Source of the DNA: JBFLYE01 sp040756715 [NCBI: bacterium]
Lineage (GTDB): Bacteria > UBA9089 > UBA9088
Reading direction: 5' to 3'
NCBI GenBank assembly: GCA_040756715.1
Contig: JBFLYE010000063.1
Span: forward strand, 1-5,400
Length of the DNA: 5,400 nucleotides
Within the stretch, counting starts at the first letter, position 1. Every line of letters starts with the position of its first letter. Shown one piece after another: positions 1 to 4,533 of the stretch. Position numbers and translations under genes: made by a program. The notes beneath the pieces are model-generated. The model did no database searches. It saw nothing but the letters and a program-made list of their open reading frames with translations, and had not been told where the DNA came from.

Positions 1-122
1 TAAAACTTAACCTTCAATTCAAAATTCAAAATTTAGAATTCAAAATTTCTTAAAAGGTGGATGAATTTTTAAACAGATAAACACACACTATCTATTTTTG
101 CACTAAGTGATGGAAGATACTA
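1..122 (-). mobile_element. MITE copy A (partial, runs off the window start)
   Basis: This is the reverse complement of the left half of copy C at 2756-2878, with near-identity over about 120 bases (shared landmarks: the GAATTTT-rich arm, AGGTGGATGAATTTTT, and TTTTTGCACTAAGT near the end). The outer terminus, read inward from position 122, is TAGTATCTTCCAT, identical to the left terminus of copy C. The bases immediately outside it, TA at 123-124, fit a TA target-site duplication. The other terminus should lie about 110 bases upstream of the window, if the copy is full length. It carries no coding capacity. It is inserted directly in front of the ABC permease start codon and is in the opposite orientation to copies B and C. 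Confidence is high that it is a repeat of the same family; the mobile nature is inferred from copy C. Confidence 0.85.
112..116 (+). promoter_or_regulatory. Shine-Dalgarno-like GGAAG supplied by the MITE end
   Basis: GGAAG lies 7 nt before the ATG at 124, a normal ribosome-binding distance, and it belongs to the MITE terminus (ATGGAAGATACTA). No other in-frame ATG, GTG or TTG exists between the upstream stop TAA at 70-72 and 124. The element therefore appears to provide the ribosome-binding site now used by the permease gene. That it works in translation is inferred. Confidence 0.45.
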
Positions 123-123
123 T

Positions 124-1140
124 ATGTTTCTTCTTTCCCTAAAGAGGCTTATAAGACATAGATTGGCAATGATTTCTTTAGGAATCCTTGGCTTTCTCTA
201 CATCCTTGCCATATTCGCCGATTTCTTTGCTTGCTATCATTATGACTATGAAAAAAGGGATAAAGCATACCATCCACCTGTTAAAATTTATTTTATTAAA
301 GATGGAAAAATAACATTTCCCTTTGTCTATGAATATAAAATGACTTGGAAGAATTACAAGAGGGTATGGCTTCCCGACAAAACAAAGCCCTATTTTCTAA
401 AGCTATTCTTTAAAGGAAGGCTATTTGGGGTAGAAGAACCTGCAATGCTTTATCTTTTAGGCTCTGATTGGAATGGAAGGGATATATTATCAAGGCTTAT
501 ATATGGTGCAAGAATCTCATTATCTATTGGCATAATTGGCGTCCTTATTTCCTTCTCATTAGGCCTTCTTATGGGAGGCATATCAGGCTATTTTGGAGGA
601 TGGATAGATACAGCAATTATGAGAACTGTTGAACTTATTATGAGCTTTCCCGCCTTTTATTTGTTGCTTAGCTTAAGGGCAATATTCCCTTTAGACCTTC
701 CCTCCTACCAGGTTTATATTATGATTGTTGTAATCTTAAGCTTCATTGAATGGGGAGGGATTGCAAGGATAATAAGGGGGATGGTTTTGTCAATAAGGGA
801 AAAGGAGTTTATCCTGGCAGAAAAGGCATTGGGTGCATCATCTTTAAGGATAATTCTCTCCCACATCCTTCCAAATACCCTTTCATATGTCATTGTCGCT
901 GCAGGACTCTCTATTCCATCATATATCCTTTCAGAATCTGCCCTATCTATGATCGGGCTTGGAATAAATGAGCCCTGGCCCTCTTGGGGAAATATGCTCT
1001 CTCGGGCAATGGATTATTCTGTTTTATCCTCCTGCTTTTGGATATTATCACCGGGCTTTCTTATCTTTGTTTCTGTCCTGTCATTTAACCTTTTATCTGA
1101 TGGCTTAAGGGATGCCTTTGACCCAAGGGCTATATTTTAA
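124..1140 (+). CDS. ABC transporter permease, OppC/DppC family (peptide/oligopeptide-type importer)
   Basis: This is an inner-membrane subunit of an ABC importer of the dipeptide/oligopeptide/nickel class; the substrate cannot be read from the sequence. The 338-residue protein has an OppC-type N-terminal segment (basic residues then a membrane helix at about 14-35), a periplasmic stretch (about 37-110), and a BPD_transp_1 domain. The domain opens with the OppC hallmark LGSDWNGRD (112-120) followed by LSRLIYGARISL. The EAA loop that contacts the ATPase is at about 226-251 (EKEFILAEKALGAS...ILPN). The protein ends with the typical FNLLSDGLRDAFDPR (321-335). About six membrane helices are apparent. 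The N-terminal periplasmic stretch is longer than in E. coli OppC/DppC; I recall a subfamily with an HPP-containing insert at this place. The partner permease, ATPases and binding protein are not in the window; an upstream oppB-like gene would be expected beyond position 1. Start 124 is the only candidate and touches MITE copy A. Confidence 0.93.
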   Translation: MFLLSLKRLIRHRLAMISLGILGFLYILAIFADFFACYHYDYEKRDKAYHPPVKIYFIKDGKITFPFVYEYKMTWKNYKRVWLPDKTKPYFLKLFFKGRLFGVEEPAMLYLLGSDWNGRDILSRLIYGARISLSIGIIGVLISFSLGLLMGGISGYFGGWIDTAIMRTVELIMSFPAFYLLLSLRAIFPLDLPSYQVYIMIVVILSFIEWGGIARIIRGMVLSIREKEFILAEKALGASSLRIILSHILPNTLSYVIVAAGLSIPSYILSESALSMIGLGINEPWPSWGNMLSRAMDYSVLSSCFWILSPGFLIFVSVLSFNLLSDGLRDAFDPRAIF

Positions 1141-1167: not shown

Positions 1168-1343
1168 AAGGATCTTCCCTCACTTAGTGCAAAAATAGAT
1201 AGGGTTTATGTTTATTTAAGAAATTTTGAATTCTAAATTTTGAATTTTGGATTGAAGGTTAAGTTTTATAAAATTTTTCCCCTTTTAATTCAAAATTCAA
1301 CATTCAAAATTCAAAATTTTATAAAGCGTTATGGAATTAACTA
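1168..1343 (+). mobile_element. MITE copy B (176 bp, internally shortened)
   Basis: Same family and orientation as copy C. The right terminus ATGGAATTAACTA (1331-1343) is identical to that of copy C and is followed by TA (1344-1345). The left terminus is eroded: AAGGATCTTCCCT replaces TAGTATCTTCCAT, and the flanking TA has become GA, so this looks like an older copy. Two internal gaps relative to copy C account for the shorter length: about 22 nt in the left arm (after 1216) and about 39 nt in the right arm (the stretch between two TAAAG motifs in copy C). It occupies most of the 211-bp space between two convergent genes and ends 8 nt before the last base of the LolC/E gene's stop codon (TAA, 1352-1354). 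No open frame of significance lies within it. Confidence 0.85.
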
Positions 1344-1351
1344 TATAATCC

Positions 1352-2506
1352 TTATTCCTCCCTTAATGCATCAGAAAGGGAAATTTTTGAGGCAAAGAGG
1401 GCTGGATACACAGAAAAAATAATAGAAAGAATAAAGGAAGAAAAAGAAATCCAGAGAATAGAATGTGTAGAAATGGCAAAGGGAAGGGAGGAGATATAAT
1501 AGACATCCCCTGGAAGCTTAATAAGAAAGGGGATAAACTTTCCAATTAAAAGCCCAAAAGAGGTTCCCATGGTTGTTCCCAAAAAACCAATTATTCCTCC
1601 CTCAATAAGGAAGATCAAGGCAATTGAGGCTTTTCCTGCTCCAAGTAGCCTCAATATCCCAATTTCCCTCTTTTTCCTTATAATGGTTATGGTTAATAAA
1701 GAAAAGAGGGAAAATAAAGAAACCAAAAGGATAATTAAGAGGATAATTGCCATTACCTTTTTCTCAAGCCTTATTGCATCAAAGAGGCTTTTATTAAGCT
1801 CATTGTATGTCCTTATTAAAAGCTCCTTTGGTAGCATTCTACACAGCCTCTCCTTTACCTCCTCTGCTTTTGAGACATCCGATAATTTTATCCCTATCCC
1901 AGAGACACCCTCAATTCCAAAGATTCTCTTTGCCGAGAATAGGGTTATATAGGAAATAGAGCTATCTACATCATACATTCCCGAGGTAAAGATTCCACAA
2001 ACCCTAAAATCAAAAGCCTTTGGCATTGCCAGGTCCTTTGCTGTAATTAAAGAAACAGAGTCGCCAATATTAGCTTGGATATTAAAGGCAAGCTCATTTC
2101 CAAGAAGAATAGAATTTTCATCTTTTAAATTCTCTCCACTTATCTCTATTCCCTCTGGTTTATCCAGACCTAAAACAATCCCGCCCGATGCTGTTTTTCC
2201 CTTAAATATTGCCTTTTGTTCAATATAGGGAAAGATGCTTGTAATCTTAAGATCCTCTATTCTTTGCAAGATTTCCTCGTAATTCTCAATGTAGTTCTCA
2301 ATATGGGTTATTCTAATATGGGGGGATGTTCCCACAATCCTTTTTTTAAGCTCTCTTTCAAACCCATTCATTACGCCCAAGACAACAATTAAAGAGGAAA
2401 CACCAAGGGCGATTAAGAAAATGGAAATAAGGCTAATAATAAAAAAGATTCTTTCCCCTTTTTTTCCAAAGATATTTCTTAAGGCAATGAGGAATCTAAA
2501 ATCCAA
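1352..2506 (-). CDS. lolC: LolC/LolE-type lipoprotein-releasing permease (FtsX/MacB_PCD family)
   Basis: This is the inner-membrane subunit of a LolCDE-like ABC complex, which uses a LolD ATPase to pass outer-membrane lipoproteins to LolA. The 384-residue protein is only slightly shorter than typical LolC/E (about 400). It begins FLIALRNIF, has a first membrane helix at about 21-46, then VMNGFERELKKRIVG (45-58), a periplasmic MacB-type core domain to about 245, and three C-terminal helices (about 251-276, 296-325, 345-373). Family hallmarks are visible: LFDAIRLEKKVMAIIL (241-256), KKREIGILRLLGA (278-290), LPGDVYYIS (331-339) and the C-terminal YPALFASK...DALREE. LolC versus LolE cannot be decided from one homologue, and no LolD is in the window. 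The start is TTG at 2504-2506, because an in-frame TGA lies two codons upstream; it overlaps the end of the protease frame by 11 nt, which suggests translational coupling. It is the last gene of the minus-strand run. Confidence 0.9.
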   Translation of the reverse strand: MDFRFLIALRNIFGKKGERIFFIISLISIFLIALGVSSLIVVLGVMNGFERELKKRIVGTSPHIRITHIENYIENYEEILQRIEDLKITSIFPYIEQKAIFKGKTASGGIVLGLDKPEGIEISGENLKDENSILLGNELAFNIQANIGDSVSLITAKDLAMPKAFDFRVCGIFTSGMYDVDSSISYITLFSAKRIFGIEGVSGIGIKLSDVSKAEEVKERLCRMLPKELLIRTYNELNKSLFDAIRLEKKVMAIILLIILLVSLFSLFSLLTITIIRKKREIGILRLLGAGKASIALIFLIEGGIIGFLGTTMGTSFGLLIGKFIPFLIKLPGDVYYISSLPFAISTHSILWISFSSFILSIIFSVYPALFASKISLSDALREE

Positions 2507-2768
2507 ATTTCAAGTCCATTCTCTTTATATGGAGAAGGCGATCTCCTAGCATATCAACAGCAGCTTGAGACTGCTCAAGGACTATATAGCCTATTAAAGG
2601 CTCATAAAAGCCATCTTCTGGTTCCATATCCACAAAAACAACCTCGCTGTAAATCTTCCGAAATCCCTCTATTTGAATCTCTACAGGGCCATAAATTTTA
2701 CCCTTAATTGTAGCTTGAGTAGCTGTTTCTAATTCTACCTCTTCAATTAAATTTATAGTATCTTCCAT
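2496..2768 (-). CDS. C-terminal fragment of the split aspartic protease, with a start codon from the MITE
   Basis: A 90-codon open frame whose first five codons (MEDTI) come from the MITE terminus and its TA duplication, and whose remaining 85 codons are the C-terminal two thirds of the protease (EVELETATQ..., YGPVEIQIEGF, EPLIGYIVLEQSQAAVDM). It lacks the catalytic DTGA. No Shine-Dalgarno-like sequence precedes the ATG: the bases upstream on the minus strand read TTTTTGCACTAAGTA. Translation is therefore doubtful and it is best read as a gene fragment. If translated, it could still couple translation to the LolC/E gene, whose TTG start overlaps its last 11 nt. Annotation pipelines would probably call it a hypothetical protein. 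Confidence 0.6.
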   Translation of the reverse strand: MEDTINLIEEVELETATQATIKGKIYGPVEIQIEGFRKIYSEVVFVDMEPEDGFYEPLIGYIVLEQSQAAVDMLGDRLLHIKRMDLKFGF

Positions 2769-2992
2769 TACTTAGTGCAAAAATAGATAGGGTTGTGTTT
2801 ATCTGTTAAAAATTCATCCACCTTTTAAGAAATTTTGAATTCTAAATTTTGAATTTTGAATTGAAGGTTTAAGTTTTATAAAATTTTTTCCCTTTTAATT
2901 CAAAATTCAACATTCAAAATTCATAATTTTATAAAGTTTTCCTTAAGATTATCTAAACACATACATTTTGTAAAGCGTTATGGAATTAACTA
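2756..2992 (+). mobile_element. MITE copy C (237 bp, TA target duplication), inserted in the protease gene
   Basis: The left terminus is TAGTATCTTCCAT (2756-2768). The right terminus, read inward on the minus strand, is TAGTTAATTCCAT (2992-2980). The two match at 10 of 13 positions as terminal inverted repeats. TA flanks both sides (2754-2755 and 2993-2994). A subterminal motif TGTGTTTA also recurs in inverted orientation in both arms (left near 2794-2801, right near 2954-2961). There is no transposase or other meaningful reading frame. TA duplication with short inverted ends fits elements moved by IS630/Tc1-mariner-type transposases; that assignment is inference, since no autonomous partner is in the window. 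The insertion boundaries are fixed independently by restoration of the interrupted reading frame. Confidence 0.9.
2830..2930. repeat. Internal inverted repeat of the MITE built from GAATTTT units
   Basis: The left arm at about 2830-2862 repeats (T)GAATTTT/TTTTGAATT units. The right arm at about 2897-2930 is the same motif in inverted orientation (AATTCAAAATTCAA...), so the core can form a long imperfect hairpin around TTTTATAAAA-containing sequence. The equivalent arms in copy B are about 1219-1252 and 1287-1320. Together with the terminal repeats, the whole element reads as one long imperfect palindrome. Confidence 0.75.
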
Positions 2993-3130
2993 TAATTCTC
3001 CTAGCCTTTCTTTCCATACACTTGGAAGAATCATATAAGCTGCACCTGTATCTACCAGAGCATCGCACTGGAGAGATTTTTCTGGATTTACTGCATTAGT
3101 AATCCTTAATGAGGTAACAATTCTTCCCAT
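2990..3130 (-). pseudogene. N-terminal fragment of the split aspartic protease (46 codons)
   Basis: The frame starts at ATG 3128-3130, inside the end of the aldolase gene, and runs for 46 codons to a TAG at 2990-2992 that belongs to the MITE terminus. It contains the DTG triad (Asp27-Thr28-Gly29) followed by Ala and a hydrophobic stretch ending in KERLGEL. It lacks the rest of the fold, including the flap and the C-terminal segment, so it cannot form a complete protease half. The coding signal is clear because both its motif and its in-frame continuation after element removal match the downstream fragment. Confidence 0.85.
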
Positions 3131-4533
3131 TGTTTAAGTATTTCTGGAAAGGGTTTTGGATAATAGAGGGGTTTGAAAAGAGAGGTAAGTTTGTCTGTAT
3201 TATCTACCTTAAGCAGCTTAAAGATTTCTAAAAATTTCTCGCTTAATTTTTCCCTTATATTTTTCTTTATCTCCTCATCTAGCTCAAAGAATTCCTTTTT
3301 AAATGGGCCAAAGCCCTTTTTCCTTGTTTTGTAGAGAAATTGGGTTTCTGTCTCTTCCTCCTTCATCTCTTTCTTGCAGGCTTCCTTTAGGTAGCTATAA
3401 ATTTTTTCCCTAAAGTCATCTGGGATAAGGTTATAGACCATATTCTGAAATTCTGTGGCAAGGTGAACCTCACATACATCTGTTTCTGGAAATTTATTGA
3501 AGAGCTCAAGAGGAAGGGTTGATGCACCATGCTGGACAGTGCCAGCCAGCTTATATTCCTTTGAAACCCTTGAGAGGACATCTAATGTATTAAAATCAAG
3601 CTTTACATCAGCTACGCCGCCAGAGGGAAGGGGAATTCCTCCATGAACCGTGCCTGTTTGAACCGCCATTTTTGAAATGCCGATATTTATCCCACGCTTT
3701 TTAATTTCTTCAAGATAGCCCCTCATATATTCCCTTAGCTCCTCTTCGTTTGAATTTTTCCCCCCTATTTCACCTATTTCTCCACCCAAAGAGACATTTA
3801 TCCCTTTTGGCTCAATCTTTCTTATATATTCTGTAAGCTCTGCGGCAGATGTAAAATTATTCCTTTGCTGCTCATAAACATTTGGCTGGGAAAGGTCAAC
3901 CAGAACAGATGTATCAAGGTCTATATTGTAAAATCCAGCCTCGATTACATCCTTTATTAAAGCCTTTACATTCTCTATATCCTGTGGAATTTTCCTTCTT
4001 ATCTGGAAGTGGTCTCCCTGAATAAATACGGGAAAAGATATACCCTCCTTTATCCCTGCCCCTATAATTGATGTAGCATATTCATCGCCTGACTGCTCGG
4101 TATATTCCATCTCACTCCTTGCAATCTCAAAGATAAAGAGAAAGGAATTAGCAATTTTAGAAGCAGAGAATACAGCCCTTGCTGTATCATAGGTAAGGCC
4201 CCTGATATTAATTGCAGGAACAGTAATGTTTGGAAATTTCCCTTCACCCTTTTCAGCATAGAATGGATATATGGATGATGGGATTATTCCAAGGTTATAA
4301 CCTATCTCCCTGATAAGCCACCGAGATGCACTTTTTATTGAGGTGTCTTCATTAAAGAGGCTGTTATAGACAAGGGAATCAATGAGCTCATTCCTTATGG
4401 CTTCAATATCCAAAACAGTTGCCCTTTCCCCTTTTATCCCTATTTTCCCTAAAATAGCCTCTAAAAATCCTTTTTTATCGTAGGTTTTATTCATAATTAC
4501 AAAGTATACCTTAAAAGAAATATTTTTGTCCAT
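3106..4533 (-). CDS. Class II (zinc-dependent) fructose-bisphosphate aldolase family protein, long form
   Basis: Class II aldolases of this family cleave or form ketose bisphosphates with a zinc ion on a TIM barrel. The 475-residue protein shows the expected order of active-site motifs: barrel start ITVPAINIRGL (103-113), GDH (173-175; Asp174 and zinc His175), DLDTSVLVDLS (205-215), GEIGEIGG (251-258; zinc Glu), TGTVHGG (293-299; His297), and TVQHGAST (332-339; His335). Correspondence with the E. coli zinc ligands is by motif, not structure. It is longer than the usual 300-360: there are about 100 extra N-terminal residues and a charged C-terminal extension after about 385. In the phosphate/substrate motif that usually reads N-I/V-D/A-T, this protein has VHLATE (356-361), with His in place of Asn, so the substrate may not be fructose bisphosphate. 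The start at 4533 is preceded by AAAGG only 2 nt away; Met14 (4494) is an alternative. The gene heads the minus-strand run and overlaps the protease start by 25 nt. Confidence 0.82.
   Translation of the reverse strand: MDKNISFKVYFVIMNKTYDKKGFLEAILGKIGIKGERATVLDIEAIRNELIDSLVYNSLFNEDTSIKSASRWLIREIGYNLGIIPSSIYPFYAEKGEGKFPNITVPAINIRGLTYDTARAVFSASKIANSFLFIFEIARSEMEYTEQSGDEYATSIIGAGIKEGISFPVFIQGDHFQIRRKIPQDIENVKALIKDVIEAGFYNIDLDTSVLVDLSQPNVYEQQRNNFTSAAELTEYIRKIEPKGINVSLGGEIGEIGGKNSNEEELREYMRGYLEEIKKRGINIGISKMAVQTGTVHGGIPLPSGGVADVKLDFNTLDVLSRVSKEYKLAGTVQHGASTLPLELFNKFPETDVCEVHLATEFQNMVYNLIPDDFREKIYSYLKEACKKEMKEEETETQFLYKTRKKGFGPFKKEFFELDEEIKKNIREKLSEKFLEIFKLLKVDNTDKLTSLFKPLYYPKPFPEILKQWEELLPH

What the first reader, a model, noticed from the sequence alone, without database searches (positions are those of the whole stretch)
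2496..3130. Aspartic protease gene cleanly interrupted by a MITE, reconstructible to the base
The sequence shows a 46-codon frame with LVDTGA ending at a TAG inside the MITE, and an 85-codon continuation on the other side in a different frame. Deleting the 237-bp element and one TA gives GAA-TTA-AAT-TTA-ATT, an uninterrupted 131-residue protein. Other duplication sizes do not work: assuming no duplication or a TATA duplication puts a TAA stop at the joint. The reading frame therefore independently proves both the element boundaries and the TA duplication, and implies recent insertion because neither half has decayed. A naive annotation would miss the N-terminal half and call the rest a hypothetical protein.
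Basis: seen in the sequence. Interest (0 to 1): 0.8.

Follow-up and report, generated by a model that had tools for sequence, protein, structure and literature searches.

The report
Protease gene split by mobile element
A short mobile DNA element, present in roughly a hundred copies in this bacterium, has jumped into a small protease gene and cut it in two; a related species still carries the gene whole, so the event is real and recent but of an ordinary kind.

Summary
Confirmed. A 237-bp non-coding element (2756-2992, TA on each side) splits a retropepsin-like protease gene lying between a class II aldolase-like gene and lolC on the minus strand. Keeping one TA rejoins a 131-residue frame. 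A same-genus genome (G001) holds the uninterrupted 127-residue gene in the same gene order, with identical DNA at the joint. The protein is predicted to fold like HIV/FIV proteases.

The element belongs to a MITE family: 96 left ends, 100 right ends and 39 paired copies in 1.55 Mb, versus two left ends in G001. Its target is TA, often within ANYTARNT, as expected of IS630/Tc1/mariner-type transposition. In seven of 37 readable copies, this one included, keeping one TA rejoins a split open frame. No matching transposase was found.

The insertion looks young: ten copies are identical, and it lies in a 228-bp stretch identical to G001 although the neighbouring genes differ by 13-16%. "Neither half has decayed" needs a caveat: a near-invariant His is Asp and the native stop is gone, but both lie outside that stretch. 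A new member of a known kind.

The parts
2756..2992 (+). 237-bp MITE, imperfect terminal inverted repeats (18 of 27 positions), no coding capacity
   Evidence: copy family; TIR comparison; no ORF of 30 aa or more lies wholly inside it
2754..2755 (.). TA target-site duplication, left copy
   Evidence: joined frame; empty site in G001
2993..2994 (.). TA target-site duplication, right copy
   Evidence: joined frame; empty site in G001
2995..3130 (-). N-terminal part of the retropepsin-like protease gene (DTGA motif); its frame runs on to a TAG at 2990-2992 inside the element
   Evidence: weak Pfam match below cut-off
2496..2755 (-). C-terminal part of the protease gene (codons 47-131 of the joined frame, plus stop)
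   Evidence: 98% protein identity to the intact G001 allele
2766..2768 (-). ATG supplied by the element end, in frame with the C-terminal part (MEDTI-)
   Evidence: 90-aa ORF 2496-2768; no evidence that it is used
3106..4533 (-). class II fructose-bisphosphate-aldolase-like gene, upstream neighbour
   Evidence: PF01116 E 9.5e-21
1352..2506 (-). lolC/lolE-type permease gene, downstream neighbour
   Evidence: TIGR02212 E 6.8e-78, 262 bits, below its 362-bit cut-off
1..124 (-). second copy of the same MITE family, left-end part only, cut by the contig start
   Evidence: (C63:100-124), alignment
1169..1345 (+). third copy with a degraded left end and internal deletions
   Evidence: right end (C63:1319-1345), alignment

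Best explanation
A non-autonomous miniature transposon of IS630/Tc1/mariner type inserted at a TA in a retropepsin-like aspartic protease gene (after codon 45 to 46 of the joined frame) and duplicated the TA. The N-terminal product stops inside the element after 46 residues, keeping the DTGA motif but losing most of the fold; the C-terminal part is out of frame. The gene is therefore almost certainly a null allele. The insertion is one of about a hundred, many of them recent, moved by a transposase not found in the assembly. Shown: boundaries, TA duplication at this site, intact sister allele, number of ends, target preference, predicted fold. Inferred: loss of function, IS630-type transposase, recency.
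For: Joined frame with one TA kept, stops at the joint otherwise. Intact allele in G001 in the same gene order, identical DNA at the joint. 96 left and 100 right ends, 39 pairs of 157-269 bp; 10 of 37 readable copies identical to this one, itself included. TA kept gives a frame of 100 or more codons with at least 45 on each side in 7 of 37 copies, against 1, 1, 1 and 2 of 37 for keeping 0, 1, 3 and 4 bases. Target context YTAR 29 of 37 against 22% of background TAs, ANYTARNT 12 of 37 against 0.8%. 228 bp without a difference from G001 across the site, the two neighbouring genes being 84.5% and 87% identical. Retropepsin-like predicted fold, mean pLDDT 91.5, matches to HIV and FIV proteases.
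Against: No transposase with these ends was found; only DDE_3 was searched for, in three genomes, and the one copy in G000 has different ends. Only one empty site was found: the C-terminal halves of two other split genes gave no match in G001 or G002, a third gave only paralogues at 28-32% identity and one short 40% match, and the flank of G001's own copy gave only two short matches in G000. One of the seven frames (L010) also passes the threshold with 1 or 4 bases kept, though shorter. Loss of function is inferred; the element supplies an in-frame ATG for the C-terminal part.
Confidence: 0.94

Rival explanations
1. The interrupted state is ancestral and G001 lost the element by precise excision.
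For: The element family also exists in G001 (two left ends).
Against: None of the 42 homologues that cover the joint is interrupted there; G001's allele has exactly one TA and no footprint; 10 of 37 copies in G000 are still identical.
Confidence: 0.02
2. The two frames are two genuine small genes (split protease) and the element between them is domesticated, its end providing the start codon of the second gene.
For: An ATG in the element end opens a 90-aa frame over the whole C-terminal part.
Against: No homologue covering the joint is split there; the N-terminal frame ends at a TAG in the element; the one allele available from the genus is intact.
Confidence: 0.03
3. Assembly artefact: a repeat wrongly joined into the gene.
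For: The assembly is badly broken at this very element: 54 of 218 contig starts lie at an unpaired end of it.
Against: Both flanks align to one contiguous G001 locus in the right order with exactly one TA duplicated; six other copies rejoin an open frame by the same rule.
Confidence: 0.02

Closest known systems
RUP (repeat unit of pneumococcus), a MITE thought to be moved by IS630-Spn1
   Same: About a hundred copies, short, TA target, can inactivate genes that it enters (RUP: 107 bp, 108 copies, IS transposase genes inactivated; PMC2229807, passages seen).
   Different: Sequence, host and length; RUP has a named partner IS with similar ends, here none was found; RUP is described as intergenic and as entering IS elements, this one lies in rejoinable open frames in 7 of 37 readable copies.
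IS630/Tc1/mariner group
   Same: TA target duplication (PMC7325037, passages); palindromic context around the TA; an IS630-type transposase locus exists in G000.
   Different: That IS630-type locus has ends that do not match the MITE ends; only a related G001 element (L099) has a right end resembling it (GCATAAATTGTTGCA against GCATAAATAGTTGCA, compared by eye, not tested).
Bacterial retropepsin-like proteases (Rlo and RimB; PMC12239564, abstract seen)
   Same: Aspartic protease with retropepsin-like features; here DTG motif and predicted fold.
   Different: Those are secreted Pseudomonas enzymes in their own operon; no signal peptide was looked for here and no direct comparison with them was made; gene context is aldolase-lolC.

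Membership tests
MITE (miniature inverted-repeat transposable element) | terminal inverted repeats | tested here: met
   18 of 27 positions match; 8 of 20,000 mononucleotide shuffles reach this
MITE (miniature inverted-repeat transposable element) | short, no coding capacity, many similar copies | tested here: met
   237 bp; no ORF of 30 aa or more wholly inside; 39 pairs, 96 left and 100 right ends
MITE (miniature inverted-repeat transposable element) | target-site duplication shown by an empty site | tested here: met
   G001 allele has one TA where the window has two; one site only
MITE (miniature inverted-repeat transposable element) | ends shared with an autonomous partner | tested here: inconclusive
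   DDE_3 transposases searched in G000, G001, G002 only, ends not matching; left end absent from 17 of 18 relatives; other transposase families not searched; the assembly may lack repeated contigs
IS630/Tc1/mariner-type mobilisation | insertion at TA with TA duplication | tested here: met
   TATA present in all 96 left and 100 right matches, which allowed 3 mismatches but were sought with TATA in the pattern
IS630/Tc1/mariner-type mobilisation | DDE_3 transposase acting on these ends | not testable with these tools
   one IS630-type locus in G000 (PF13358, NF033545), ends different; needs a transposition assay
Retropepsin-like aspartic protease | D-T-G motif and retropepsin fold | tested here: met
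   D26, T27, G28 conserved in 90% or more of 36 sequences; model mean pLDDT 91.5, HIV/FIV protease matches; PF13650 25.0 bits over the 24.3 cut-off
Retropepsin-like aspartic protease | proteolytic activity as a dimer | not testable with these tools
   no assay
TIGR03698 clan_AA_DTGF | score over the curated cut-off | tested here: not met
   25.2 against 57.35 bits for the intact G001 protein; so not filed under this model

The most novel reading that the evidence does not exclude
One species of an uncultivated lineage is in, or just past, a runaway burst of an IS630-type MITE (about one copy per 15 kb, many identical, at least seven open frames split), while the other genome of its genus has almost none; the source of the transposase is gone from the genome or came from outside. 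The insertion here sits in a stretch recently exchanged with the sister lineage, which puts it after that exchange.
Probability: 0.4. Interest if true: 0.45.

Novelty: new member of a known kind. Interest (0 to 1): 0.3.

Why it matters
It is a clean natural case in which the reading frame, a sister allele and a recombination tract together fix the ends, the target duplication and the relative age of a bacterial transposon insertion. The same element accounts for a good part of the breaks in this genome assembly, and it warns that gene catalogues of such genomes will miss genes that are merely split. MITE insertions into genes are otherwise well known.

Tried and rejected
The resident IS630-type locus (L106) was tested as the partner: its ends differ. 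The DDE_3 matches of G001 and G002 (L107-L113) were scanned for TA-starting end pairs; clear pairs, with other ends, appeared only in L109/L111 and L110/L113, none resembling the MITE; L112 gave no pair and L107 and L108 nothing above the noise. Other transposase families were not searched. Viral contigs hold neither end as an exact pattern. Rfam has no match in the window at gathering score. A promoter/terminator scan of 2400-3300 found 7 promoter-like sites against 3.6 (sd 2.1) in shuffles and no terminator; one spans the right element end and the flank (2968-2996), not pursued. Empty sites for other copies: two searches negative, one gave only paralogues; the flank of G001's own copy gave only two short matches in G000. 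The 240-bp element query matched 11 of 18 relatives; outside G001 the listed matches fall in the AT-rich interior and were not counted as the family. The idea that the Asp at the conserved His position shows decay after insertion was dropped as undatable, because it lies beyond the identical stretch.

Rows dropped: 2 of 39 paired copies lack 100 bp of flank and were left out of the 37. In the looser count (at least 20 codons per side, frame of 100 or more, longer than with 0, 1, 3 or 4 bases kept) 10 of 37 qualify; three (L005, L008, L152) were left out of the seven. At the strict threshold L010 also passes with 1 and with 4 bases kept, L058 with 4, L019 with 0 and with 3. Of the 46 loci, ten are not in the 36-row alignment: L077, L081, L145, L146 (partial), L076 (in-frame TGA), L143 and L144 (longer frames), and L083, L124 and L135, which are full length or nearly so and were left out only for convenience.

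Papers: PMC2229807 and PMC7325037, passages; PMC12239564, abstract and outline; the rest only as search listings.

Full report
What was checked. The window carries, on the minus strand, an aldolase-like gene (3106-4533), a small protease gene (3130 down to 2496) and a lolC/E-type gene (1352-2506). The protease gene is broken: its N-terminal frame of 46 codons ends at a TAG at 2990-2992, and its C-terminal part lies beyond an inserted element. Keeping one TA and removing 239 bases gives an uninterrupted 131-residue frame; keeping none or both TAs puts a stop at the joint.

The sister allele. The C-terminal part, searched in 98 genomes with the window's own included, matched in 12; in the own genome G000 (96% complete) it matched only here, so no second copy was seen at E 0.001. 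The same-genus genome G001 has it at 98% identity within an uninterrupted 127-residue gene, with aldolase directly upstream and lolC directly downstream; the DNA at the joint equals the joined window sequence, with a single TA. The same-family genome G002 has no match. A scan of named genomes returned 31 loci with relatives, from records of many phyla. Of 46 loci tried, 42 have residues on both sides of the joint and none is split there; 4 are partial; one of the 42 (L076) has an in-frame TGA about 20 residues further on. Thirty-six were aligned.

What the protein is. The intact G001 protein scores just over the Pfam cut-off for Asp_protease_2 (25.0 against 24.3) but under NCBIfam TIGR03698 (25.2 against 57.35). 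A profile of 36 relatives matches engineered covalent-dimer HIV-1 proteases in the PDB weakly (best E 0.0001 for the whole sequence, each domain alone not significant). The predicted structure (best of five models mean pLDDT 91.5, worst 71.7) matches a chain of kinetoplastid mitoribosomes first and then many HIV and FIV proteases (E about 1e-5, TM-scores by target length about 0.67-0.80). The break falls between the helix 36-42 and the strand that starts at residue 46 of the G001 protein, so the N-terminal product keeps the DTGA motif and loses most of the fold. The halves alone reach no curated cut-off, so annotation would very likely miss the gene.

The element. A 240-bp query has ten full-score matches in G000, the window's included. 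End patterns with up to 3 mismatches give 96 left and 100 right ends, none with the reversed control; 39 pair up into elements of 157-269 bp, 23 of them 240-245 bp. Of the unpaired 57 left and 61 right ends, 54 lie at contig starts, in 54 of the 218 contigs; many of the rest lie near contig ends where the contig length was seen, and some are inside contigs, such as C63:1319 whose left end has decayed. So there are about a hundred copies (inference). Folded as RNA from the minus strand, the element is far more stable than shuffles (z -5.6), as DNA moderately (z -2.5). Of 18 relatives only G001 has the left end, twice; one of these belongs to a complete element of about 170 bp with a different interior (L098).

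Target and class. Of 37 copies with at least 100 bp of flank on both sides, 35 have a pyrimidine before the TA and 31 a purine after it; YTAR 29 of 37 against 22% of 7,828 TAs in the flanks; ANYTARNT 12 of 37 against 0.8%. With TA kept, 7 of 37 copies rejoin a frame of at least 100 codons with 45 or more on each side; with 0, 1, 3 or 4 bases kept, 1, 1, 1 and 2 do. Besides the window these are: L004, whose halves match Response_reg and Trans_reg_C; L032 and L002, whose second halves match RimK-like ATP-grasp and DUF3368 while the first halves match nothing at E 0.01; L010 and L160, of which only the first halves were scanned (PD40; DUF11 and TIG weakly); and L044, not scanned, whose second half matches long uninterrupted frames in G001, G002 and G003 at 28-32% identity, with one short match at 40%. 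TA duplication is shared by the IS630/Tc1/mariner group (PMC7325037). The one IS630-type locus in G000 has different ends; a related G001 element (L099) has a right end close to it (by eye). So IS630-type mobilisation is well supported by target, not proven by a partner.

Age. Compared with G001, the aldolase and lolC genes are 87% and 84.5% identical and the C-terminal protease part 98% (the aldolase also has a stretch of 94-97%). Codons 31-106 of the protease have no difference at all (228 bp, spanning the insertion), while fourfold sites differ at 42 of 153 in aldolase and 30 of 122 in lolC. Constraint on the protein does not explain identical silent sites, so this stretch was most likely exchanged between the lineages recently, and the element came after (inference). 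Ten identical copies point the same way. Against a fully intact state: beyond codon 106 there are five changed codons, one of them His to Asp where 43 of 45 homologues with a residue have His, and about 16 bp around the native stop are missing, adding three residues (length read by eye). These lie outside the identical stretch and may predate the insertion.

Verdict. The finding is correct and its main prediction, an uninterrupted allele between aldolase and lolC, was verified in one genome. It is a new insertion by a MITE family of a known kind; the closest described case that I saw is RUP with IS630-Spn1 (PMC2229807).

Noticed in passing
window 1-124, 124-1140, 1169-1345: An oppC-like permease gene lies between two oppositely oriented copies of the same MITE family; its listed ATG (124-126) uses the last A of the left element's flanking TA.
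   Followed up: no
window 3733-4182: A second stretch of raised identity to G001 (94-97% in 150-bp windows) in the aldolase gene, suggesting further exchange between the two lineages.
   Followed up: partly
L101, L103, L105 (G001): A different G001 repeat with ends GTAACTATTCA shares about 31 bp (window 2937-2967, 94%) and an AATTCATCCA piece with this MITE, as if MITEs with unrelated ends shared interior modules.
   Followed up: no
L099 (G001:C72:1915 onward): An element with the same left end but a different right end (TATAGTATCTTGCATAAATTGTTGCA on the outward-to-inward strand), closer to the resident IS630 ends.
   Followed up: partly
L071, L080, L119, L139, L140: In 5 of the 44 protease loci looked at a neighbour looks like a glycolytic gene: aldolase in L071 and L080 (by likeness to the window's gene), phosphofructokinase, GAPDH and PGK in the others (recognised from memory, no search).
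   Followed up: no
left ends listed: 88 of 96 left ends carry ATGG on the strand that reads outward into the flank (the other 8 have TTCCCT), so insertions can open new frames; here this gives a 90-aa frame.
   Followed up: no
window 2968-2996: A promoter-like pair (TTGTAA, 17, TATAAT; 10 of 12) is formed by the right element end and the flank, reading outward on the plus strand.
   Followed up: no
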